64,000 nt of DNA from SAR116 cluster bacterium AG-447-A06 (lineage in GTDB: Bacteria > Pseudomonadota > Alphaproteobacteria > Puniceispirillales > Puniceispirillaceae): NCBI GenBank assembly GCA_003212345.1, contig QCPZ01000003.1, forward strand, positions 1-64,000. The letters are read 5' to 3'. Below, piece after piece: positions 695 to 12,808 of the stretch (positions are counted from its first letter, which is position 1; the number at the start of each line of letters is the position of its first letter). Made by a program: the position numbers and the translations under genes. The notes beneath the pieces were generated by a model. That model was given only the letters and a program-made list of their open reading frames with translations, did no database searches and had not been told where the DNA came from.

Positions 695-1543
695 TTAGGC
701 CATTTCTCTTTCACCTGCCTTGAAGGCCTTAACGGCTTCCTCGTGAACAGCGTCATTAACCTCTTCAAGCAGCCTCCTAAATTTTTCGGATGATTGGGTC
801 TCGTATGATCTTGGACGCGGTATTTTTACTTCAACGGTCTTTTTTAACTGACAAGGACGAGTTGTAACGATGTGGACTTTGTCACCGAGGAATATTGCCT
901 CTTCCAGATCGTGGGTAATAAAAAAGATTGTCACTCCAGTACGATCGTATGTTTCTAGGAGCGATTCGTGCATAATTTGTTTGGTCAGAGCATCCATCGC
1001 ACGGTAGGGTTCGTCCAACAAAAGTACCTTTGGGTTGTTGATCAAGGCTCTTACAATTTCAGCTCGCCGAGCCATGCCTGACGATACCTCGCCGGGGTAT
1101 TTTTTGAGAAAGTTACCCAACCCCGCCTCTGCGAGCATTTGTCCGGCTTTGTCTAGAGCTTGTGCGGGAGGCAAAACTTTTTGAACGGTTGGGCCGTAGG
1201 CAACATTTTCTTGCAAGGTTTTCCATGGAAAAAGTGCGCCATGTTGAAACACAACCATGCGTTCGGCACTTTGATCAGCTTTTGGCTTTCCTGGCCCACA
1301 CAACAATTCATCATCCAGGTGAATGCTTCCCTCTGTAATTGAATGGAAACCTGCGATACCATTTAGTAAAGTTGTCTTACCGCATCCAGATGGCCCCACG
1401 ATCATGCATACTTCGCCGCCAGCTATTTCCATGGAACAATCGTCAACAGCCATCACATTTACGCCAGTCGGATCATAAATTTTCGTGACATTTTTAATGC
1501 TTAGCGCACCTTTTTTTTCTACTTTTGAGGTGTTTTTAGCCAT
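695..1543 (-). CDS. ABC transporter ATP-binding protein, nitrate/taurine/sulfonate type
   Basis: A 282-residue cytoplasmic ATPase that should power the flanking permeases. Walker A is GPSGCGKTT at about residues 50-58, the Q-loop is FQHGALFPW, Walker B is VLLLDEP, and a switch histidine lies in FFITHDLEEA. The signature reads VSSGMARR where this family usually has LSGGMRQR, so the second signature residue pair is non-canonical. The gene lies 54 bases after the upstream permease and 60 before the next, as in an operon. Assignment to the TauB/SsuB/NrtD group rests on length and on the FPWKTL and DLEEA motifs. The sulfonate substrate is inferred from context. Confidence 0.88.
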   Translation of the reverse strand: MAKNTSKVEKKGALSIKNVTKIYDPTGVNVMAVDDCSMEIAGGEVCMIVGPSGCGKTTLLNGIAGFHSITEGSIHLDDELLCGPGKPKADQSAERMVVFQHGALFPWKTLQENVAYGPTVQKVLPPAQALDKAGQMLAEAGLGNFLKKYPGEVSSGMARRAEIVRALINNPKVLLLDEPYRAMDALTKQIMHESLLETYDRTGVTIFFITHDLEEAIFLGDKVHIVTTRPCQLKKTVEVKIPRPRSYETQSSEKFRRLLEEVNDAVHEEAVKAFKAGEREMA

Positions 1544-1596
1544 TTATTTAACTTTCATGTCCGTTTTGTTTTAAGGGTTGAGTTGCCGACATCTGA

Positions 1597-2469
1597 TTAG
1601 CGCCCTTGCTGGGCCAGCTCTTTAACGTGCCAAGCCATTAGCCTGTTACCGAGCGCGCGCACACAAGCAGAGCTGAAATAACCAATAAAACCGAGAGTGA
1701 TCATAGCAATCACCATGGGCACTGTTACATTATTCATGTATGCATCAACAATTAGGTAGCCTAAACCTAGGTCTCCCGAGACCATTTCGGCAGCAACTAA
1801 TGAGAACCAAGCAACGCCGATAGATATTTGGAGCCCAGTAAAAATGAATGGAAGCGCGCCCGGAACAACAACATTTTTAAATACATCCCAGCGCGATGAG
1901 CCTAAACACCCGGCAGCTCTGAAATATTCTTCATCAATTGAGTCGACTCCAAGCATTGCATTGAGTGTTGTGACAAAAAATGATGCCAGAGTTGCAAGAA
2001 AAATTACTGGTCCTTCAAAACCGGGCAGCAGCAAAATGGATAGTGGCACCCATGCAAGAATGGGGATTGGACGAAGCAGTTCAATGATTGGAAAGATATA
2101 ATCCCTGATTGATCTGGACCATCCCATAAACAGTCCCAAGGGGACTCCAAGACCAGTGGCAATACCAAAAGCGATCAGAATGCGCTGGCAACTTACATAA
2201 ATGTGATCGTAATACTCTTGCGTAAAAATTGAGATCCCTTGGAATGGCGTTGTGGAAAACCAATCCTTGGAAATTGCAACCGGTCCGGGCAACTTGGTGA
2301 AGCGCCAAATTTGGAGCCCTTCGCACAACACCCAGTATGCAAACAGCCATAAAAACACACCGGCGATGGTCAAATAAGGATCAGGGCCACTAAAATGCTT
2401 TTTGGTACGGTATAGGAATAGATTAAAACCTTCAGGTGCAACCTTATTTGATTCTGCTGTGGAATTCAT
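1597..2469 (-). CDS. ABC transporter permease, NitT/TauT type
   Basis: Inner-membrane permease of 290 residues, paired with the partial permease at the window start. The EAA loop is visible as EEYFRAAGCLGSSRWDVFKN followed by VVPGALPFIFTG. I start at the ATG at 2469 because GGAGCGAAGA precedes it at good spacing. An in-frame ATG at 2526 has no ribosome-binding site and would add 19 polar residues. The gene follows the binding-protein gene after an intrinsic hairpin, which would lower permease expression relative to the binding protein. Confidence 0.85.
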   Translation of the reverse strand: MNSTAESNKVAPEGFNLFLYRTKKHFSGPDPYLTIAGVFLWLFAYWVLCEGLQIWRFTKLPGPVAISKDWFSTTPFQGISIFTQEYYDHIYVSCQRILIAFGIATGLGVPLGLFMGWSRSIRDYIFPIIELLRPIPILAWVPLSILLLPGFEGPVIFLATLASFFVTTLNAMLGVDSIDEEYFRAAGCLGSSRWDVFKNVVVPGALPFIFTGLQISIGVAWFSLVAAEMVSGDLGLGYLIVDAYMNNVTVPMVIAMITLGFIGYFSSACVRALGNRLMAWHVKELAQQGR

Positions 2470-2578
2470 TTCTTCGCTCCGGTACCGATACTGTGAGTTT
2501 GCTCGCCTGCGTGACCACAAGGGCATGTCTTATGGTTAATCTTTAAAACATAAACTAAATGAATGAATGAATTAATAA

Positions 2579-2610
2579 AACCAAGGCCCATGTTCGGAAG
2601 GGCCTTGGTT
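2579..2610 (-). terminator. Intrinsic terminator/attenuator after the binding-protein gene
   Basis: A perfect 11-bp stem (2579-2589 with 2600-2610, AACCAAGGCCC arms) and a 10-base loop. On the minus strand it is followed by TTTTATTAAT. It lies 16 bases past the stop of the binding-protein gene and inside the transporter operon. It probably terminates most transcripts so that binding protein exceeds permease, or protects the binding-protein mRNA 3' end. Confidence 0.8.
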
Positions 2611-2625
2611 CTGTATTCCGATCGT

Positions 2626-3732
2626 TTATTTCGCTACGATGCGTCCAACTGGAGTTTTCAAGCCACGCTTTTCGAGCACGCGCTCTGCAAACTGGCCCAT
2701 GACGCCCTCTGGACGAATTTGTGGTGCAGCAGCTGGCTTCTTCTTCAAGCTGTAAAGAAATGCTGTCGCATCGCGAAGCAATGATTTTGCATCGTCACTG
2801 ATTGTGAAATCAAGCTGCAACTTGGTTGTGCCTGACATGGGAGAGTCGTAAAGACTTGCCTTGAGCACGGACTGATCGATCTTTTCAGTTTGGGCCTCAG
2901 CCATTGCTGCAATTGCATCAGCGTTCGCTGGGTTTGCAACAAATTCTTGGGCATCAAGCTCAGCTTCTAGCCAACCCATGACAGCATCAGGGCGCTGTGA
3001 GATCAGGTCATTCAGCATCACCATGAATGCACCATCCTGAAGACCAAAATCTTCACCAGATGCTGCGCGACGAGCGATGCCTGATTTTACCATTTTAGTA
3101 GCTGTTGGCTCCCAAATGGCGGCTGCATCTAACTTTCCAGCGCGGAAATTTGTCGTGATAACCTCAATGTTCTGATTGAGATATTTGGCTGGCTTTACGC
3201 CCGCTGACCTGAAGGCAGCCTGGGCGAACCTGTCAGTGCAAGCGCCATGGGGAGCTGATGTGACTTTTCCGTCCATCCACTTAACTGCTGCAACCCCGTC
3301 TGCAAATTTCGGCGCATCATTTTTTACGAGGAAGATATTGCACTGCTGCTTCGATGTGCCAAGTGCAGCAACAATACGAATGTCTGTGCCGCCACGCTCC
3401 GGTAAATACTTAAAGGTAGAAGCAATAGCAGGCATGTCGCCCATGTAACCAATATGCTGCTTCTCTCCTGCCATTGCATTCACGATGACTGAGCCCTGAA
3501 GTCCAACTTGAAACTCGGCGGTAGAGCCAGCCGGAAGATGTTTTTTCCAGAAGCTTTTCCCGTTGTTTACGACACCTGTCCATGACTCGGTATAATATGG
3601 CTGATAGCCAATCACCAAATTCACAGCCTCGCCTCTTTTTCCAAAATCAACGCCAGCGTTGGCGGCTGATGCCCCCATCATGACAGCGCCCATTGCCGCC
3701 ATCTTGACGGATGTTTTCAAAATGCTATTCAT
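2626..3732 (-). CDS. Periplasmic substrate-binding protein, NMT1/TauA-SsuA-like
   Basis: A 368-residue exported binding protein, first gene of the importer operon. A Sec signal peptide is clear (hydrophobic core about residues 11-23, AnA cleavage after about residue 26). The mature part has the type II binding fold pattern of nitrate/sulfonate/taurine binders: NLVIGYQPYY near the start, GDMPAIAST, and TTNFRAGKLDAAAIWEPTAT. The start has a strong GGGAGGAAAG site. Because the adjacent divergent operon encodes a methanesulfonate-monooxygenase-like enzyme, an MsmE-like sulfonate binder is the leading hypothesis. Other small organosulfonates or sulfones remain possible. Confidence 0.85.
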   Translation of the reverse strand: MNSILKTSVKMAAMGAVMMGASAANAGVDFGKRGEAVNLVIGYQPYYTESWTGVVNNGKSFWKKHLPAGSTAEFQVGLQGSVIVNAMAGEKQHIGYMGDMPAIASTFKYLPERGGTDIRIVAALGTSKQQCNIFLVKNDAPKFADGVAAVKWMDGKVTSAPHGACTDRFAQAAFRSAGVKPAKYLNQNIEVITTNFRAGKLDAAAIWEPTATKMVKSGIARRAASGEDFGLQDGAFMVMLNDLISQRPDAVMGWLEAELDAQEFVANPANADAIAAMAEAQTEKIDQSVLKASLYDSPMSGTTKLQLDFTISDDAKSLLRDATAFLYSLKKKPAAAPQIRPEGVMGQFAERVLEKRGLKTPVGRIVAK

Positions 3733-4044: not shown

Positions 4045-6435
4045 ATGGATTTTGCAGAAAATAACCCCAACGGCTCGATCGACCGCGATCAAGCATCCGT
4101 TTCAGAAAAGGTGGCAGCAAAGGCTTTAGACCAAGCTTTTATTGAAGAACAAAAAAGGATTTTTAAGAATTCTTGGGTTCCAGTGTGCCATGAGTCAGAG
4201 CTGCCTGAGCCATATGACTTTCGCACATCAAGCATTGGTAATGAAAATGTTATTATCTGCCGAGCGCCAGATGGAAAAATAAACGCGCTGTTAAATGTAT
4301 GCCCCCACAGGGGAATGCTTATCGAGCGCCGTCCGCAGGGCAGCTTTCTTGAGGGGCAGGCGTCCGGTAACCCAAAACGAATCACTTGCATGTTTCACGC
4401 TTGGCAATTTGATATGAGGGGCAACTGCGTTTACGTGGCGCGGGAAAAAGAGGGCTATCAAGATAGATTTTGCAAGGACGACGCAGGCCTGAGAAGATTA
4501 CGTTGCGAGGTAAATTTTGGCGGGTTTGTGTGGGTGAATATGAATGATCAGCCAGCGGTGTTCCTAGAGGAATGGGCTGGTCCGGCATTTTCGTCGATTC
4601 AATCTCAAATTAGTTCTGAACCGCTTGAAGTGGTGCATTATCACAAGGAAGTTGTCGAAATGGGGTATCGGCAATTAATGTCTCAGAGCCTATCGGCAGT
4701 TGATAGTTATACTGCTGCAACCAGTTTTGACTATGGGCATCTCGTAACGAGGCACGGTAAAGCGGACAACCAAGATGCAGCCAAGGGCAACTCTTTTCCC
4801 TCCCCAAATGCGGAAACATGCACAAGCGTCAGGATTTTTCCTGGTTTCACGTTTAATCTTGATGGGCCCACCCTAAATGTATCGACGATTACACCATTAA
4901 ACGAAAGCCAGGTGATGATAGAGCATCGGGGGCTTGCGCCTCAGATGGATAATAAGGAATCAAGGCATCTTCGATCAAAATATTACAATAATAAGTTTGG
5001 ACCTTTTCGGCTGCAAGAGCTATCTGAACCTGAACAAAATGAGTCTGACCCGGTTAAAGTGAATAGCTGGTATACTCATTACAACGATGAGTGGTTGCGT
5101 TGGATGGACAAACATCCAAATGGCGAGACACGTATCGCAGAACTCCCAACCTCACGTTCTAAAGAAGGTGAACTTGACGAAAATAGTGGGCTTTCTGGGC
5201 CACATATAGTGGTCATCGGCGCCAGTCATGCTGGTGTGGCTTTTGTGGACAAGGTCCGAAAAAATGGTTTTGTTGGTCGTTTGACTGTCTTTGACCGTCA
5301 GGTTGGTGGGCCAATGGAGCGACCACCTCTTTCGAAAGGGTTCCTGTTGGGCGGTGGTGAGACCGTCGAGTCAAAGTCTCTGTTAAGACAAAAGAAATGG
5401 TACAAAACCAACAGGATTAAACTGAAAACACAGTCTAATGTTGAAGCGATTGATACAAAGAAAAAGACCGTAACAGTCAGTAGTGGAGACGTCATAAAGT
5501 ACGACAGTTTGGTAATTGCCAGCGGAGCGATCCCGCGTGAACTGCCCGATGCCCAAGGCATGGGTAATGCTTTCACCTTGCGTCAGCCGTCAGATGCGAA
5601 TGCGATTCGCCAAGCCGCAAATAATTCTGATACGGTGGTCATAATTGGTGGAGGCTATATTGGTCTCGAAGTTGCAGCCTCTCTGCGAAAAAAAGGAATG
5701 ACAGTTACCGTGATAGAAGCCGCCGAGAGAATTTTGGCGAGAGTTGCCAGCAAACCTCTGGCAGATCGCTTGACGAAATTGCACGAGGATAATGGGGTTC
5801 AAGTGCTCACAGGCGTTGGCGTCGATAGTATTAATGCTGAGGCAGGTATTTTCGAGAGTGTTACTCTCACTAGCGGTGAAAAAATTGTTGGAGACATGCT
5901 TATCACTGGCATCGGTGTTTTTCCCGATAGTACGCTGGCGGCGAGTGCCGGCATCGAAACTCAGCGAAAAGATGGTGGAGCTATTCTCGTAGACGAAGCT
6001 ATGAGGACAAGTGAAAAAGACGTATTTGCCGTCGGTGATGTTGCGTTGCGCCGTGACCAACTCTTGGCTATTGAGTCCGTTCACAACGCTCAGGAGACAG
6101 CGGCTGTAGCAGCAGCGGCAGTTACAGGGTCAATTACGCCAACGATACAAACCCCTTGGTTTTGGTCCGACCAATATGACGTAAAATTGCAATCAGTTGG
6201 CGTGGTCCCGATCAATGATGACGATGTGTATCAGGTTGCTCGACCTGGTAAACGCGAAGGTGCGGTGTCTTTTTGGAGCTACAGGGGTGATGACTTGGTG
6301 GCAGTTGAAGTCGTAAATGACCCAGCAACGTATATGGAGGCTCGGCAGTGCCTTGACACAAAACAATATCCAGATCCAGAACAGATATCAAACCCGTCTT
6401 TCTCACCCATAGATAGTGGTGGGGCGAGATCCTAG
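4045..6435 (+). CDS. Rieske oxygenase alpha-like subunit (iron-site-less) fused to FAD ferredoxin reductase
   Basis: A 796-residue fusion. Residues 1-370 resemble a Rieske oxygenase alpha subunit of the MsmA type. The Rieske ligands C86, H88, C115 and H118 are all present, with 26 residues between the pairs instead of the usual 16-18. The catalytic half aligns with the paralogue at 8704 but its mononuclear-iron site is gone: E164, H167 and H171 there correspond to S217, D220 and A224 here. The segment after the expected third ligand is also about 15-20 residues shorter. Residues 385-796 are a BphA4/putidaredoxin-reductase-type flavoprotein with FAD motif GASHAG near 392, RPPLSKG, NAD(P) motif GGGYIGLEVA and FAVGDVA. 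The likely role is to carry electrons from NAD(P)H towards the paralogue's iron. No frameshift separates the halves. The ATG has AAGGTG upstream. Confidence 0.88.
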   Translation: MDFAENNPNGSIDRDQASVSEKVAAKALDQAFIEEQKRIFKNSWVPVCHESELPEPYDFRTSSIGNENVIICRAPDGKINALLNVCPHRGMLIERRPQGSFLEGQASGNPKRITCMFHAWQFDMRGNCVYVAREKEGYQDRFCKDDAGLRRLRCEVNFGGFVWVNMNDQPAVFLEEWAGPAFSSIQSQISSEPLEVVHYHKEVVEMGYRQLMSQSLSAVDSYTAATSFDYGHLVTRHGKADNQDAAKGNSFPSPNAETCTSVRIFPGFTFNLDGPTLNVSTITPLNESQVMIEHRGLAPQMDNKESRHLRSKYYNNKFGPFRLQELSEPEQNESDPVKVNSWYTHYNDEWLRWMDKHPNGETRIAELPTSRSKEGELDENSGLSGPHIVVIGASHAGVAFVDKVRKNGFVGRLTVFDRQVGGPMERPPLSKGFLLGGGETVESKSLLRQKKWYKTNRIKLKTQSNVEAIDTKKKTVTVSSGDVIKYDSLVIASGAIPRELPDAQGMGNAFTLRQPSDANAIRQAANNSDTVVIIGGGYIGLEVAASLRKKGMTVTVIEAAERILARVASKPLADRLTKLHEDNGVQVLTGVGVDSINAEAGIFESVTLTSGEKIVGDMLITGIGVFPDSTLAASAGIETQRKDGGAILVDEAMRTSEKDVFAVGDVALRRDQLLAIESVHNAQETAAVAAAAVTGSITPTIQTPWFWSDQYDVKLQSVGVVPINDDDVYQVARPGKREGAVSFWSYRGDDLVAVEVVNDPATYMEARQCLDTKQYPDPEQISNPSFSPIDSGGARS

Positions 6436-6519
6436 ACAGGATTTAAATAGTTGTCTTTGACCTGTATGGTCAACGAGCGAACAATTTTGTAAACGCAAGT
6501 TTGATACTAAATCTCAAAC

Positions 6520-7041
6520 ATGGACTCAGAAAGTAATGATATGGAAAATAATTCTTCGGTAGACATTGAAAGAAAGATTGAGAGAATAATTTATCAGGCT
6601 GCACTGGCCCTAGATAAAAACAACTGGGCTGACTGGTTCAAGCTTTGTGATGACTCCTTTTTCTATGCGATAACCTCTTTCAGCCCGGAAATAAGCAAGG
6701 ATATGACCTATTTTAGTGGCGACAAAAAAGAGCTAACGGGCCTCATGGAAATGCTACCTAAGCATAATACCGACCATTCGCCACTGCATAGGCATACCTC
6801 TGTTTACACCATAGATGTGTCCGAAGATGGTAAAACAGCTGAAGCTGTGAGCTCGGTTGTAATCTACCAAAATATGCTGGATGGGATCAACTCGCACCTT
6901 GACTCAGGCGAAAGCAGGCTTTTTGTCATTGGAAAGTACCATGATAAATTTGTTATTGATGGTGGGGAGCCAAAGTTTGTTAACCGGGAGACAAAGATAG
7001 ACAATAGGCGCCTTGACAAAGGCTCGCATTGGCCTCTCTAG
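6520..7041 (+). CDS. Ring-hydroxylating oxygenase beta subunit (MsmB-like)
   Basis: A 173-residue protein with the SnoaL/NTF2-like fold pattern of Rieske oxygenase small subunits. An N-terminal helix (IERIIYQAALALDKNNWADW) leads into FKLCDDSFFY, HRHTSVYTIDV and a final beta sheet (SRLFVIGKYHDKF, then FVNRETKIDNRRLD). Small subunits have a structural role in alpha3beta3 hydroxylases. It sits 84 bases after the fusion gene and before the ferredoxin gene, matching the msmABC order as I recall it. The start is uncertain: ATG 6520 or ATG 6541, neither with a strong ribosome-binding site. Confidence 0.8.
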   Translation: MDSESNDMENNSSVDIERKIERIIYQAALALDKNNWADWFKLCDDSFFYAITSFSPEISKDMTYFSGDKKELTGLMEMLPKHNTDHSPLHRHTSVYTIDVSEDGKTAEAVSSVVIYQNMLDGINSHLDSGESRLFVIGKYHDKFVIDGGEPKFVNRETKIDNRRLDKGSHWPL

Positions 7042-7093
7042 GCAAAAGCTTGGGTATATGGACTGAGACTAAATTTGCAAAGAAAGTAAAAAC

Positions 7094-7501
7094 ATGACTT
7101 GGACAAAAGTCTGTGAGAAAAGTGACATACCCGAGGGCTCGATAAAGAAAGTTTGGGCACGAATCGGTGGTGGTATTCCAATTGCTGTTGCCCACCATAA
7201 AAGAGGTTTTGTTGCGATACCCCCAGTTTGTCCTCATCTGGAGGAACCATTAGAAGAGTCTGGCCTAGTAATGGGATGCAAGCTTACGTGTACCAAGCAT
7301 CTGTGGTCATGGGACTTGGAAACTTTAGAGCTGCAGGATGAAGCAGAGTTGCCACTCAAAACGTACGACGTGAAAGTCGAGGGTGGCAACATCATGGTTT
7401 ATGTTACCGAACAACTTGAATACAATTTTGACGAAGACGAAGACATTGATGAGAACACTTTTTTTGACGACGATGAGGACGATGATGATGACGAGTGGTA
7501 G
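7094..7501 (+). CDS. Rieske [2Fe-2S] ferredoxin with acidic tail (MsmC-like)
   Basis: A 135-residue soluble ferredoxin. It has one classical Rieske motif, C46-P-H48, 17 residues, then C66-T-K-H69, followed by LWSWD as in multicomponent oxygenase ferredoxins. It probably shuttles electrons from the reductase domain of the fusion protein to a Rieske alpha subunit. The last 26 residues (from about Y110) contain 17 Asp/Glu, ending in a nearly pure Asp run and a Trp. I know of no such tail on typical Rieske ferredoxins; it may be a docking element for a basic partner surface. The gene lies 52 bases after the beta-subunit gene. Confidence 0.88.
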   Translation: MTWTKVCEKSDIPEGSIKKVWARIGGGIPIAVAHHKRGFVAIPPVCPHLEEPLEESGLVMGCKLTCTKHLWSWDLETLELQDEAELPLKTYDVKVEGGNIMVYVTEQLEYNFDEDEDIDENTFFDDDEDDDDDEW

Positions 7502-7670
7502 GCAAACTCATTTATAAAGAATGTCTTGACCAAATTTCACAGCAATCGAGATCTTGGCGTAATGTCAATAAAATGATTTATAAATTTGCTTACTTAAGAA
7601 AACACCAACATTTGATAGTGTGCTGAACACTTCAGCCAAAATCTGATGGTACGGATTGAGAGAGAATTTT

Positions 7671-8495
7671 TTGAACGATTCAAGTCAATGGCCACCTGTA
7701 AACATTTTTGACACCAACCAATTTAGGCAAGCAAGAATCGAAGCGCATAACGCCCTATTCTGGATGGCTCGGGGAACTAACAGTTTCTTAGACTCGACAC
7801 CGGACAATGGGCACTTAAGCTTGTTCTGGCACAAAGCTTCGGGCAATTTTCGAACGAGATCTTTCGATGGGGATCTTCAAATTGGCCTGAGTTTTCCCGA
7901 TTTGGAATTGTATTTTTGTGAAGGTGGTCAAAAGGTGCCACACAGCTTTTGGCTCGATGATCGAACACCCGCATTTGCAGAGGCTTGGTATTTGGTTGAA
8001 TTACTGCACAGAGATCGCGACCAATCAAAATTTTCTACCGACCTGCCTTTTTCTTCACCGTATATGCTAATGGGGGATACTGAAGACCACAACGCTTCGG
8101 CTTACAAACTAGAGCTTGATGCTTTGAATTCCAGCGTTTTGAAAGCAAACGAAATATTAAGGAGTGTATCTGGTGCCATTACTCAGCGGCCTCAATTCAC
8201 AAAATGTCGACAATGGATAACATTAGAACCAGAGTCATTTTCCTTAGTTCTCAATATTGTCGTGGACAATGAGGCAGTCAAATTGCCATTAATCGGAATG
8301 TGTCTGGGTGATCATTTACGCCCGGCACCGTTTTTCTTTGTCAAAACCAGTGAAACGCAAGGAGGGTCCAAAACTCATCTGCTAGATTATGACCCTAGAA
8401 CGTTGTTGTCATTAAAATCTATTGTTAATGAAACCATGACTGACGTCGAACTTGTTGAAAATCTTGTTGGTAAGTTTATCGAGGCCAATCATTAG
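7671..8495 (+). CDS. Unrecognised protein inside the oxygenase operon
   Basis: A 274-residue protein with no family I recognise. It has no signal peptide or membrane segments. It contains repeated Trp/Phe-rich strands (LSLFWHKASGNFRTR, LQIGLSFPDLELYF), a central helical part (YKLELDALNSSVLKANEIL) and a final MCLGDHLRPAPFFFVK stretch. It lies on the same strand between the ferredoxin and the second alpha-like subunit, so a role in assembling or regulating the split oxygenase is a reasonable guess. I chose the TTG at 7671 because GAGAGA precedes it. An in-frame TTG at 7656 would add five residues. Confidence 0.65.
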   Translation: MNDSSQWPPVNIFDTNQFRQARIEAHNALFWMARGTNSFLDSTPDNGHLSLFWHKASGNFRTRSFDGDLQIGLSFPDLELYFCEGGQKVPHSFWLDDRTPAFAEAWYLVELLHRDRDQSKFSTDLPFSSPYMLMGDTEDHNASAYKLELDALNSSVLKANEILRSVSGAITQRPQFTKCRQWITLEPESFSLVLNIVVDNEAVKLPLIGMCLGDHLRPAPFFFVKTSETQGGSKTHLLDYDPRTLLSLKSIVNETMTDVELVENLVGKFIEANH

Positions 8496-8703
8496 AAATA
8501 ATGTTAGGTGTGGTGACAAACTCATGCCGCCAGACAAAAATTCGTAATAATATTAGATTTTGGCTATTAGCCGATTACTTTTGTTTTCGAAGATCTTCGT
8601 TGACATCGGTAGTGCCAAAATGGAACAATTGATGCATACTTTGCTATTCGGGCCGCAAAAAATGCACAGAACGGCAACAAATTAATTGCGATGGGAGTGC
8701 GAA

Positions 8704-9792
8704 ATGCCACCAAGAAACCACAAAAATTGGTTAAAAGTTCCAAAGATCGAACACATTTCAAGCGAGTGCTATAACAATCATAGCATCTACGAGCAGGAAA
8801 TTGAGCATATCTTCGCGAAAGTTTGGGTGCCGATGTGTCACTTTAGTGAAATGTCCAATGACGGTGACTATCGTTCGACGCAAATTGCCCACCAAAACGT
8901 GGTCGCGGTAAACATCAAGGGCAATGTCAAGGTGTTTCTTTGCCCTTCAATTGATCGGCCTGCTGGTAATGGGCTTGATACCGCTGGATTGAAAGAGCTT
9001 CACAGTGAAGTGAAACACGGCGGTATGGTTTGGACGACGCTCGACCCAAACCCAACCCAAAGTGTTGAAGAGTGGACGTGCGGAGCGTTCGACTGCATTG
9101 CAGATGCTATCGACGCCGAAGATATGGAAGTGTTTCACTATCATAAGGCAGTTATCGACACGAATTACAAGTTATGGCATGACACAAATAGTGAGTTCTA
9201 TCACGATTTCATGCATTATTTTAATCGAGTGTCTGGGTTCAATGACGAATACTTTGCCAGAAAAAACATCCCGTTTGATAATGGCCATGTGAATGTAAGT
9301 AGCTTCACAGTGAACTACGAAGAATATGATGGGTTCGAAGATCGTGGGGAGTTATCTTTCCCAAATTTGCCACCAAACCAGTGGTATATGGTTGACCTGT
9401 TCCCAGGGTTTAATTTTAACCTTAGGGGTAGTGCATACAGAAGCGACACCGTCACCCCGCTGGGGCCAAATAAGGTACTTATTGAATTCAGAGGTTATGG
9501 GCTTAAGAAAGACACCCCGGAAGAGCGTCAGACACGTATAAAACACCACAATTCCATTTGGGGGCCATTTGGGCGTAACCTCCATGAGGATCTGATTGGT
9601 GTTGCGGGCCAAGGGACTACAATGCGAGAGGGAACAGAAGCTCGTAATATCTTACATGGGCGGCATGAAAACTCAACGATACATGACGAAGTCGGTATGA
9701 GACACTATTATGAAGCCTGGGGGAAATTCCTAGGGGTGTCGCCGGCTAATCCTCTCGGCTTAGCAACTGACGATGTGATTGCCGCTGAGTAA
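8704..9792 (+). CDS. Rieske-oxygenase alpha-like subunit lacking the Rieske cluster
   Basis: A 362-residue protein paralogous to residues 1-370 of the fusion at 4045 (for example KVWVPMCH against NSWVPVCH, FPGFNFNLRG against FPGFTFNLDG). It retains the mononuclear non-haem iron region: NYKLWHD, then E164-x2-H167-x3-H171, with D296 in LHEDLIG as likely third ligand. About 45 residues covering the Rieske loops are missing. Only a C80-P-S82 relic remains where the fusion has C86-P-H88, and no CxxH follows. It could bind substrate and oxygen only with electrons from another subunit's Rieske cluster, most simply the fusion protein's. ATG 8704 has GGGAG at good spacing; an in-frame TTG at 8686 is less likely. 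Confidence 0.85.
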   Translation: MPPRNHKNWLKVPKIEHISSECYNNHSIYEQEIEHIFAKVWVPMCHFSEMSNDGDYRSTQIAHQNVVAVNIKGNVKVFLCPSIDRPAGNGLDTAGLKELHSEVKHGGMVWTTLDPNPTQSVEEWTCGAFDCIADAIDAEDMEVFHYHKAVIDTNYKLWHDTNSEFYHDFMHYFNRVSGFNDEYFARKNIPFDNGHVNVSSFTVNYEEYDGFEDRGELSFPNLPPNQWYMVDLFPGFNFNLRGSAYRSDTVTPLGPNKVLIEFRGYGLKKDTPEERQTRIKHHNSIWGPFGRNLHEDLIGVAGQGTTMREGTEARNILHGRHENSTIHDEVGMRHYYEAWGKFLGVSPANPLGLATDDVIAAE

Positions 9793-9885: not shown

Positions 9886-10830
9886 TTAGCCTGCTGATGC
9901 GGTTGATTTATGATAAAGAAAATTCTGCAGTTCACTATTCTTCGCAAGTGCACGCCCAACCTCCTCAGTTATTTTTGTGATTGGAATAGTTGTTTCAGTC
10001 TTGACCCAGAATAGCCCTATTCCTTTTCGTATTATTGGGTCTTTCAGCAAAAGTGCTTTAGTTCCCGTGTAGAGGCCAGGCATTCTCGTATAATGTGATG
10101 GGATAACCGTACAAAGTTCTGTAAATTGAGTTTGAAACATCAAATGCAGTATTGACTCCGATTCAATTTTTGGCACAACACTCGTTCCCGCAGCCGTGAA
10201 CGTTTGATCGATTACTGAACGCTCATACATTGATTTTCGTAGTAAGGCCAGCGGCAGGTCTGCTGCTTCTGCCCAGGTAATGTCATTCATATTCTCGAAT
10301 TTAAAAGAGTCCGGTACCAATAAGCTCCAAGTTTCCTCAAAAACTGGTAAGGCCTCGCACCAGGGCATTTCATCAGATTGGTCTATATAAGTTATGGCAC
10401 AATCAATCGAATAATTGTCCAAGCTAGTTTTTAGCTCGTTATTTCCAACAAACCTTACGTCGACAGACACTAGCGGGTATGCTTTTCGGATACGCTGTAA
10501 AATAATTGGCAAGACAGGGGACATTGAAGGTATAGCGCCAAGGCGGATAGTTCCACTCAAGCTGCCCTGCATTTCTGCTATATTGTCACGCATTGCAGTG
10601 CAGTTGGCCAAGATCAAGCGGGCCCAATACGCAACACGCTCTCCTTCTTCCGTAATCCCATACAAGCGTTGGCCGCGTCCTCTCTTAAATAAGGTAACGC
10701 CTAATTCAAATTCCAGTTGCTTTATACCATTCGATAGGCTGGGCTGCTTAACGTTGCAACGGGCAGCAGCTCTTCCAAAATGGTCTTCTTCAATAACAGC
10801 GATAAGATATTCAAGTTGTTTTAGAAACAT
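9886..10830 (-). CDS. LysR-family transcriptional regulator
   Basis: A 314-residue LysR regulator. The N-terminal winged helix-turn-helix is clear (FLKQLEYLIAVIEEDHFGRA, then VKQPSLSNGIKQLE). The C-terminal effector domain follows from about residue 90 (GTIRLGAIPSMSPVLPIIL). It is convergent with the oxygenase operon, so it is a candidate regulator of it, or of the TauE gene that starts 180 bases away in the other direction. I start at ATG 10830 (MFLKQLEY). A GTG at 10845 would add five residues. Confidence 0.9.
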   Translation of the reverse strand: MFLKQLEYLIAVIEEDHFGRAAARCNVKQPSLSNGIKQLEFELGVTLFKRGRGQRLYGITEEGERVAYWARLILANCTAMRDNIAEMQGSLSGTIRLGAIPSMSPVLPIILQRIRKAYPLVSVDVRFVGNNELKTSLDNYSIDCAITYIDQSDEMPWCEALPVFEETWSLLVPDSFKFENMNDITWAEAADLPLALLRKSMYERSVIDQTFTAAGTSVVPKIESESILHLMFQTQFTELCTVIPSHYTRMPGLYTGTKALLLKDPIIRKGIGLFWVKTETTIPITKITEEVGRALAKNSELQNFLYHKSTASAG

Positions 10831-11006
10831 CCTATTGCCTCTCACGTTACTCTTTTGATTGTAGTAAACAAAAATAGCTTAGATGCGTTTATTCACGAAT
10901 AACTGGGTCCCTAGTCTATCAAAACCTTAGGAATATAACATATTATCACTTATGTTTGAATTCTCCGAATTAATAATACCGTGTTTTTTAGTGATTATTT
11001 GGGGTA

Positions 11007-11920: not shown

Positions 11921-12808
11921 ATGAGTGACGCCAAGCCAAGAAGAAAAGTTACTTTTAAAACGCTACAGAAGAAGATGGCAGCTGGTGAGCCAATAACCCA
12001 GTTAGCAGCTTATGATTACCGAACTGCGGTTGTTGCCGATCGCTTGGGTATGGACATCTTATGTGTTTCAGACACAGGTGGAATGATCTTGTTTGGGCAC
12101 CAGAGCACGACGGCCGTGAGCTTTGATGAAGTTATGATGATGTCTAAAGCGATTGATCGTGGATCTCAGTATGGATTGAGAATGGTTGATATGCCTTATT
12201 GGAGTTTTCACGTCTCCAAAGAGCAGGCTGTCGAAAATGCTGGTCGCTTCGTTCACGAAGCGAATGCGGAAGTGATGAAATGTGAGGGCAATCGCCATCA
12301 TGTTCCGGCTATTGAAGCAATTGTCAGTGCTGGAATACCTGTTCAGGGCCATATTGGCATAACACCAATGCGAATGCCTCAATTAGGGGGTTTTATTGCC
12401 CAGGGCAAGACAGCAGACCGTGCAAAAGAGTTGATTGACGATGCTAAGGCAATGTATGACGCTGGCTGTTTTTCGATACTCTGTGAGGTCACAACATCAG
12501 AAGTTGCCGAATATTTGGCTGAAATTCTTCCAGTCCCGGTAATTAGCTTAGGTGCTGGTAATTGTGCCGATGGTGTGCACATCATCTCCTCGGACTTATT
12601 CCATTTGTGGGAGGAGCACGTGCCGAAGCACTCTCGCATATACACAGATTTGATCCCGATAATGGAAGATGTAATTACCCGGTACATGGATGACGTAAAA
12701 ACTAGAAATTACCCGGGTCCCGAAAACACGATAAAAATGCCTGAGGACGAGCTGCGTAAGTTTGCCAAAGATATGAAATGGGAGCGTAAGCTTGAGGAAC
12801 TTGGGTGA
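11921..12808 (+). CDS. PanB-like (ketopantoate hydroxymethyltransferase family) protein
   Basis: A 295-residue TIM-barrel protein of the PanB/PEP-mutase superfamily. It keeps the PanB metal-site positions: Asp in SDTGGM, Asp in DMPYWSF and Glu in KCEGN. It also keeps GHIGITP and the catalytic Glu in LCEVTTSE. It differs from textbook PanB (about 264 residues) in a longer C-terminus and in DMPYWSF for DMPFGSY. PanB uses 5,10-methylene-THF, and the next genes make exactly that cofactor. It may therefore be a C1-linked aldolase other than, or in addition to, pantothenate synthesis. GGGAGGAAAG gives a strong start. Confidence 0.7.
   Translation: MSDAKPRRKVTFKTLQKKMAAGEPITQLAAYDYRTAVVADRLGMDILCVSDTGGMILFGHQSTTAVSFDEVMMMSKAIDRGSQYGLRMVDMPYWSFHVSKEQAVENAGRFVHEANAEVMKCEGNRHHVPAIEAIVSAGIPVQGHIGITPMRMPQLGGFIAQGKTADRAKELIDDAKAMYDAGCFSILCEVTTSEVAEYLAEILPVPVISLGAGNCADGVHIISSDLFHLWEEHVPKHSRIYTDLIPIMEDVITRYMDDVKTRNYPGPENTIKMPEDELRKFAKDMKWERKLEELG

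What the first reader, a model, noticed from the sequence alone, without database searches (positions are those of the whole stretch)
4045..9792. Split Rieske oxygenase: two paralogous alpha subunits with reciprocal loss of cofactor sites
The fusion protein keeps all four Rieske ligands (C86, H88, C115, H118) but aligns S217, D220 and A224 where the paralogue at 8704 has E164, H167 and H171, so its mononuclear iron site is gone. The paralogue keeps that site but has lost about 45 residues covering the Rieske loops; only C80-P-S82 remains of the CxH motif. Neither can be a complete oxygenase alone. In Rieske oxygenases electrons cross from one subunit's Rieske cluster to the neighbour's iron, so a mixed complex of the two would restore one full active site. 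NdmC/NdmD in caffeine demethylation, as I recall, is a distant precedent: one partner lacks a Rieske domain and the reductase partner supplies it. An MsmA-type version with two degenerate paralogues would be a separate invention.
Basis: partly seen in the sequence, partly recalled or inferred. Interest (0 to 1): 0.93.

Follow-up and report, generated by a model that had tools for sequence, protein, structure and literature searches.

The report
Oxygenase split into two complementary halves
SAR116-type ocean bacteria encode a predicted sulfonate-oxidising enzyme as two complementary proteins, one keeping only the iron-sulfur cluster site and the other only the reaction-iron site, which would likely have to pair to work, and the 126 distinct viral copies examined here are of the second half, with no first half beside them.

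Summary
The 796-aa protein (4045-6435) keeps the CXH-X26-CXXH Rieske motif of methanesulfonate monooxygenase (MsmA) but no mononuclear-iron ligand set; the 362-aa protein (8704-9792) keeps E164/H167/H171/D296 but lost the Rieske loops. Against 18 intact MsmA the fusions average 76% identity in the Rieske region and 34% in the catalytic region, the iron halves 39% and 76%. In the order (136 genomes) both genes occur in the same 12 genomes; one further genome has intact MsmA and neither half. Both kept sites are under strong purifying selection. New: viral contigs carry the iron half without a partner (153 of 153 loci), and host iron halves form one clade nested inside the viral ones (AU p 0.0066). 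Most likely mechanism, inferred: a mixed alpha ring in which the fusion's cluster reduces the neighbour's iron across the interface. Closest precedent: NdmCDE, where a Rieske domain sits on the reductase; two reciprocally dead alpha scaffolds differ. That one MsmA copy lacks the motif was in print (PMC4433239); reciprocal loss appeared in none of my ten literature searches.

The parts
4045..6435 (+). Rieske-half fusion: MsmA-type alpha subunit with intact Rieske site and dead iron site, fused to a glutathione-reductase-type ferredoxin reductase (796 aa)
4171..4440 (+). Rieske [2Fe-2S] domain, ligands C86 H88 C115 H118, spacer 26
   Evidence: Pfam PF00355
4540..5118 (+). eroded catalytic (helix-grip) domain without iron ligands; fold predicted to be retained (limits approximate)
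5203..6402 (+). FAD/NAD(P)H reductase domain (PF07992, PF14759)
6520..7041 (+). beta subunit (MsmB-type; SnoaL_4, weak Ring_hydroxyl_B below cut-off)
7094..7501 (+). Rieske-type ferredoxin (MsmC-type)
7656..8495 (+). orfX, 279 aa, no Pfam or NCBIfam match; distant homologues (27-35%) near some intact msm operons
8704..9792 (+). iron-half alpha subunit (362 aa), Rieske loops deleted, PF00848 only
8935..8979 (+). scar of the deleted Rieske loops (CPS remnant, residues about 78-92)
9193..9216 (+). E164-F-Y-H167-D-F-M-H171: presumed bridging Glu and two iron-binding His
9589..9591 (+). D296, presumed third iron ligand, invariant in alignment A1
695..3732 (-). divergent sulfonate-type ABC transporter genes: binding protein 2626-3732 by family scan; ATPase and permease named by eye from the ORFs
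9886..10845 (-). LysR-type regulator, conserved beside the iron half

Best explanation
The two genes encode what are predicted to be complementary halves of one Rieske oxygenase of the methanesulfonate-monooxygenase kind, a Rieske-only alpha subunit fused to its reductase and an iron-only alpha subunit, which likely assemble into a mixed ring so that electrons would pass from the Rieske cluster of one to the iron of the other. Shown: which ligand sets are kept and lost, the domain-by-domain conservation, the co-occurrence, the purifying selection, and single-chain models with the alpha fold. Inferred: NADH gives electrons to the FAD reductase domain of the fusion, then through the small Rieske ferredoxin to the fusion's Rieske cluster; that cluster sits at the head-to-tail interface next to the bridging Glu164 and the iron of the iron-only subunit; the iron activates O2 on a sulfonate, probably methanesulfonate, giving formaldehyde and sulfite. 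In a three-membered ring any mixed composition (2+1 or 1+2) holds exactly one productive Rieske-to-iron junction, so one working site per ring is predicted. Inferred too: phages that carry only the iron half would rely on the Rieske half (or an intact MsmA) of their host.
Against: No heterocomplex was predicted or measured. Structurally known Rieske oxygenases are C3-symmetric (PMC12445004, passages); a two-kind ring of three breaks that symmetry and wastes two junctions. In 4 of 13 copies (G015, both of G024, G028) the iron-half gene lies about 7-11 kb from the fusion, in three of them on the other strand, so not in one operon; in G014 the two are on different contigs. Viral contigs carry the iron half without any partner, so it may have a role of its own. 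The substrate is not tested; SAR116 sulfonate use is predicted in papers, not shown here.
Confidence: 0.72

Rival explanations
1. NdmD-like delivery without a mixed ring: the iron half forms a homotrimer with beta, and the fusion acts as an external donor whose Rieske domain docks into the place vacated in each iron subunit; its dead catalytic domain is only a spacer.
For: NdmCDE works in a comparable way and carries the Rieske domain on the reductase (PMC4408171, passages); the fusion joins Rieske and reductase in one chain; it would give three working sites per trimer and keep C3 symmetry.
Against: The dead domain keeps the alpha fold in the model and is under purifying selection, dN/dS 0.15-0.23, more than a spacer seems to need; in G028 and in two database proteins (P0126, P0127, 331 aa) the Rieske half ends before the reductase.
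Confidence: 0.18
2. The halves have separate jobs: the fusion is a Rieske/FAD redox protein for something else, and the iron half works or regulates on its own, for example as a decoy or regulator in phage infection.
For: Viral contigs carry the iron half with no partner in 153 of 153 loci; the two genes are kilobases apart in G015, G024 and G028.
Against: Same 12 genomes and mutual exclusion with intact MsmA in the order; iron ligands and bridging Glu kept in 153/153 viral loci point to redox chemistry that needs an electron source.
Confidence: 0.07
3. Assembly error, pseudogenes or annotation artefact in one genome.
For: The own genome is a draft of 69 contigs, 80% complete.
Against: Both halves in 13 copies from 12 genomes, one of them a single contig rated 100% complete; dN/dS far below 1 in both genes.
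Confidence: 0.01

Closest known systems
Methanesulfonate monooxygenase (MSAMO; MsmABCD)
   Same: Rieske motif CXH-X26-CXXH, beta subunit, Rieske ferredoxin, divergent sulfonate transporter, about 76% identity in each kept domain
   Different: One MsmA is replaced by two complementary alpha proteins; the reductase is fused to the Rieske half instead of a separate MsmD
NdmCDE (caffeine N7-demethylase complex)
   Same: An iron-only oxygenase subunit whose Rieske cluster sits on the reductase chain (PMC4408171, passages)
   Different: There the Rieske domain is an extra domain of the reductase NdmD (FMN, two [2Fe-2S] clusters) and a GST-like NdmE is needed; here the Rieske half is a whole alpha scaffold with a dead iron site, with beta subunit and Rieske ferredoxin
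NdmA/NdmB (alpha3alpha'3)
   Same: Two kinds of alpha subunit in one assembly (PMC12445004, passages)
   Different: NdmA and NdmB are both complete Rieske monooxygenases (PMC4408171, passages); that each ring is made of one kind is recalled
Phage HMO-2011 'MsmA' (phage1322_61)
   Same: Same iron-half protein, 74% identical over 97%, without Rieske motif (noted in PMC4433239, passages)
   Different: Carried alone in a phage; called an MsmA, not half an enzyme, in what I saw (PMC4928673, passages)
Tandem alpha pairs of another alphaproteobacterial family (f30; L145, L146, L147)
   Same: Second alpha with lost or damaged Rieske site and intact iron site beside a first alpha, beta and ferredoxin
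   Different: The first alpha is intact (one-sided loss); a common clade of the two Rieske-less kinds is rejected (AU p 2e-5)

Membership tests
MSAMO alpha subunit (MsmA) | CXH-X26-CXXH Rieske motif | tested here: met
   Fusion: CPH at 86, CMFH at 115, spacer 26. The 362-aa protein fails it.
MSAMO alpha subunit (MsmA) | Mononuclear iron site (2-His-1-carboxylate plus bridging acid) in the same chain | tested here: not met
   0 of 16 aligned fusions have the ligand set; it is met by the 362-aa protein. Neither chain alone is an MsmA.
MSAMO system (msmABCD + msmEFGH) | Operon with beta subunit, Rieske ferredoxin, reductase and divergent transporter | tested here: met
   the reductase is present as a fused domain.
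MSAMO system (msmABCD + msmEFGH) | Oxidation of methanesulfonate to formaldehyde and sulfite | not testable with these tools
   Needs enzyme or growth assays.
NdmCDE-type split oxygenase | Rieske domain absent from the oxygenase and present on the reductase chain | tested here: met
NdmCDE-type split oxygenase | Rieske domain is a bare extra domain of an FMN/plant-ferredoxin reductase | tested here: not met
   A complete degenerate alpha precedes a Pyr_redox_2/Reductase_C reductase.
NdmCDE-type split oxygenase | GST-like structural partner (NdmE) | tested here: inconclusive
   orfX (279 aa) has no Pfam or NCBIfam match; its fold was not predicted.
Rieske oxygenase alpha3 / alpha3beta3 | Alpha fold in both chains | tested here: met
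Rieske oxygenase alpha3 / alpha3beta3 | Cross-subunit Rieske-to-iron electron transfer | not testable with these tools
   Only single chains can be predicted here.

The most novel reading that the evidence does not exclude
The iron half is a domesticated phage gene: phages carried a Rieske-less MsmA that plugs into the host enzyme, an ancestor of SAR116 captured it once, and its own MsmA then lost its iron site and fused with the reductase, making a bacterial enzyme that is half host and half viral. Marine phages of several lineages still carry only that half, an auxiliary gene that works solely as a subunit of a host complex.
Probability: 0.35. Interest if true: 0.93.

Novelty: new variant of a known kind. 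Interest (0 to 1): 0.85.

Why it matters
It would be a naturally evolved two-part Rieske oxygenase in which each alpha subunit keeps one metal site, a clean natural test of the rule that electrons cross between subunits. It would correct the reading of a phage gene annotated as MsmA, predicts that it can act only with a host partner, and changes how msmA counts in the ocean should be read, since a Rieske-less gene is half an enzyme.

Tried and rejected
Third intact MsmA-type alpha in the genome: PF00848 rings once in the own genome. PF00355 rings five times: the fusion, the ferredoxin (C3:7097), two VanA/dicamba-type monooxygenases judged by eye from sequence (L002, L003), and a 200-aa frame (C6:2736) not followed up.

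Fusion in phages: a scan of viral contigs with residues 1-210 found 12 pattern matches and no relative, and tblastn of the whole fusion against 50,697 phage records gave no record covered to 80%. The viral scan finds close relatives only.

Single Rieske loss shared with the f30 tandem pairs: rejected (AU p 2e-5). Single duplication giving both halves: not rejected (p 0.286; 0.058 for iron halves with the SAR116 intact MsmA in a set without fusions), so the origin of the pair is left open.

The AU test on viral monophyly was set after a first tree had been seen. Viral rows were thinned to 29 of 153 at 88% identity, and L196 and L198 (MAG contigs with the iron half alone) were put with the viral rows because no operon gene lies beside them; neither has a homologue of the HMO-2011 neighbour genes tested. 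L198 has a ribonucleotide reductase gene that matches phage families, which cells have too; L196 was not scanned. The 153 viral loci hold 126 distinct proteins, and one contig is in twice (L102, L310); L048 is part of a 316-kb contig whose viral nature I could not confirm.

The dN/dS values are simple counts on six pairs; cells with infinite dS were not used and several others have dS above 1.

G028: the Rieske half and the reductase are in two overlapping frames; a sequencing frameshift cannot be told from a natural split, but two database proteins end at nearly the same length (P0126, P0127).

Full report
What is there. The window holds a sulfonate-type gene cluster: a divergent ABC transporter (695-3732, minus strand; the binding protein by family scan, the other two by eye), a 796-aa fusion (4045-6435), a beta subunit (6520-7041), a Rieske ferredoxin (7094-7501), an unknown 279-aa protein (7656-8495) and a 362-aa alpha protein (8704-9792), followed by a LysR regulator, a TauE-like protein (by eye), a PanB-like protein and one-carbon genes (by eye). 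Pfam finds Rieske plus a reductase in the fusion but no catalytic alpha domain, and the catalytic alpha domain but no Rieske in the 362-aa protein.

Reciprocal loss. Aligned with relatives, the fusion keeps CPH and CMFH with the 26-residue spacer of methanesulfonate monooxygenase and has no iron ligand set; the 362-aa protein keeps E164, H167, H171 and D296 and has lost the Rieske loops. In the joint tally the 120 listed best homologues of the 362-aa protein (of 1195 hits) are all Rieske-minus/iron-plus. Of the 120 listed best homologues of the fusion's N-terminal part (of 501 hits), 102 have both sites, 15 are Rieske-plus/iron-minus (several are fragments; two of them, P0156 and P0216, keep E-H-H and have a gap only at the Asp), 2 have neither (a 220-aa protein and P0185) and 1 is Rieske-minus/iron-plus (P0233, S-P in place of C-H). 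Of the 52 new proteins, 40 are Rieske-plus/iron-minus (38 longer than 560 aa; the two short ones, P0288 and P0294, keep both His and differ only at the Asp column), 11 have both sites and 1 has neither (P0281). Taken together, 38 of 40 proteins longer than 560 aa are Rieske-plus/iron-minus, none has both sites, and the other two (P0185, P0281) lack most or all of the Rieske ligands and the iron set. The lost columns in the fusions scatter over many residues, as expected of a site without constraint.

Co-occurrence. Among 136 genomes of the order, many of them incomplete, the iron half is present in 12 and the Rieske half in the same 12; G024 has two copies of each, and in G027 the fusion is cut by contig ends. 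One further genome (G508; its MsmA is identical to that of SAR116 MED-G04, L212) has an intact MsmA with beta and ferredoxin and neither half. Record titles of near relatives name SAR116 and Candidatus Puniceispirillum. Four relatives at least 98% complete (G015, G024, G025, G029) show no other MsmA-type alpha at E 1e-20. In G015, G024 (both copies) and G028 the iron half lies about 7-11 kb from the fusion, in G024 and G028 on the other strand; in G014 the two are on different contigs. Outside the order the intact form is the rule: of 58 loci tallied (these partly repeat the G genomes, and L160 and L212 are one locus), 40 have both sites; 17 are iron halves (15 with SAR116-type context, plus L196 and L198 without operon genes), and one, L233 of Hansschlegelia zhihuaiae, reads as Rieske-minus only because its frame changes between the two domains.

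Viruses. HMO-2011, a phage of Candidatus Puniceispirillum marinum, carries an iron half (74% identity) among structural, lysozyme, portal and terminase genes. Of 153 viral loci kept (126 distinct proteins; one contig is in twice), 153 have the iron half with E-H-H-D and no Rieske ligands, and none has any other gene of the cluster within the stretch fetched. 102 of 153 also encode a homologue of a gene near the HMO-2011 copy. Of 20 neighbour proteins from seven loci without such homologues, 12 match a PHROG family, among them replicative helicase, UvsX, ribonucleotide reductase, tail and portal proteins, which suggests that several phage lineages carry it; for L048 no structural gene was seen. 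In a careful tree rooted by 8 intact MsmA, 17 host iron halves form one clade (100/99) inside the viral ones; a single viral clade appears in 0% of 200 bootstrap trees and is rejected (AU p 0.0066; group named after a first tree). The simplest reading is one capture from phage by an ancestor of these SAR116; repeated capture by phages from unsampled hosts is not excluded.

Origin of the pair. In the broad tree the fusions are next to the intact MsmA of SAR116 MED-G04 (support 88, not starred) while the iron halves branch elsewhere among intact MsmA, but tests do not reject a common clade (p 0.286; 0.058 in a set without the fusions). So the word paralogue is not secured, and neither is a viral source. 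A second case of one-sided loss exists: three genomes of another family (f30) have tandem alphas, the first intact, the second with lost or damaged Rieske ligands; two more Rieske-minus alphas (L244, L245) turned up in the ten genomes searched there, and a common origin with the iron half is rejected (p 2e-5).

Mechanism. In Rieske oxygenases cluster and iron are about 44 A apart within a chain and 12.2 A apart across the head-to-tail interface, and the bridging Glu of CntA is essential (PMC7948474, passages). Two half-dead alpha chains in one ring would therefore restore a working junction. In a ring of three each mixed composition has one such junction; this follows from geometry and was not measured. 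The alternative, an iron-half homotrimer served by the fusion as an outside donor, resembles NdmCDE and is my main rival.

Known or new. PMC4433239 (passages) already states that IMCC1322 has two MsmA annotations, only one with the Rieske motif, and that GOS and virome copies and the HMO-2011 copy lack it. The words 'mononuclear' and 'fusion' do not occur in it. SAR116 genome papers (PMC12262181, PMC8547437, passages) speak of msmA without halves in the places seen; PMC9038755 on HMO-2011-type phages has no occurrence of 'methanesulf'. [quoted passage not shown] In ten searches I saw no report of two alpha subunits with reciprocal loss; the library holds open-licence papers only, and the HMO-2011 genome paper itself is not held. 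That G015 is IMCC1322 is my guess from its single 2.75-Mb contig (recalled size), not a result.

Noticed in passing
L145:9100-11330, L146:8317-10652, L147:8325-10720: Tandem alpha pairs in another alphaproteobacterial family: first alpha intact, second with Rieske ligands lost or damaged (CQCH, AP--, ----) and iron site kept; an independent one-sided version of the same trick, beside beta and ferredoxin genes.
   Followed up: partly
L233:10001-11268: MsmA of Hansschlegelia zhihuaiae changes frame between its Rieske and catalytic domains; sequencing error or a natural break.
   Followed up: no
L134:15189-17575: In G028 the Rieske half (330 aa) and the reductase (465 aa) sit in overlapping frames, and two database proteins (P0126, P0127; 331 aa) have nearly the same length.
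   Followed up: partly
window 7656-8495: 279-aa protein without any Pfam or NCBIfam match, kept beside split msm genes (45-92% identity) and some intact msm operons (27-35%); function unknown.
   Followed up: partly
window 11921-12808: PanB-like protein (3-methyl-2-oxobutanoate hydroxymethyltransferase family, below one curated cut-off and just above another), 97-99% identical across the SAR116 loci and 81-88% in distant msm loci; unusually conserved, perhaps a one-carbon enzyme of this pathway.
   Followed up: no
L048 (from a contig of 316 kb), L074, L198: Iron-half genes also lie in a very large contig classed as viral and in contigs with ribonucleotide reductase genes; hosts unknown.
   Followed up: partly
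L132 and L133 (genome G024): One genome holds two copies of the split system on different contigs.
   Followed up: no
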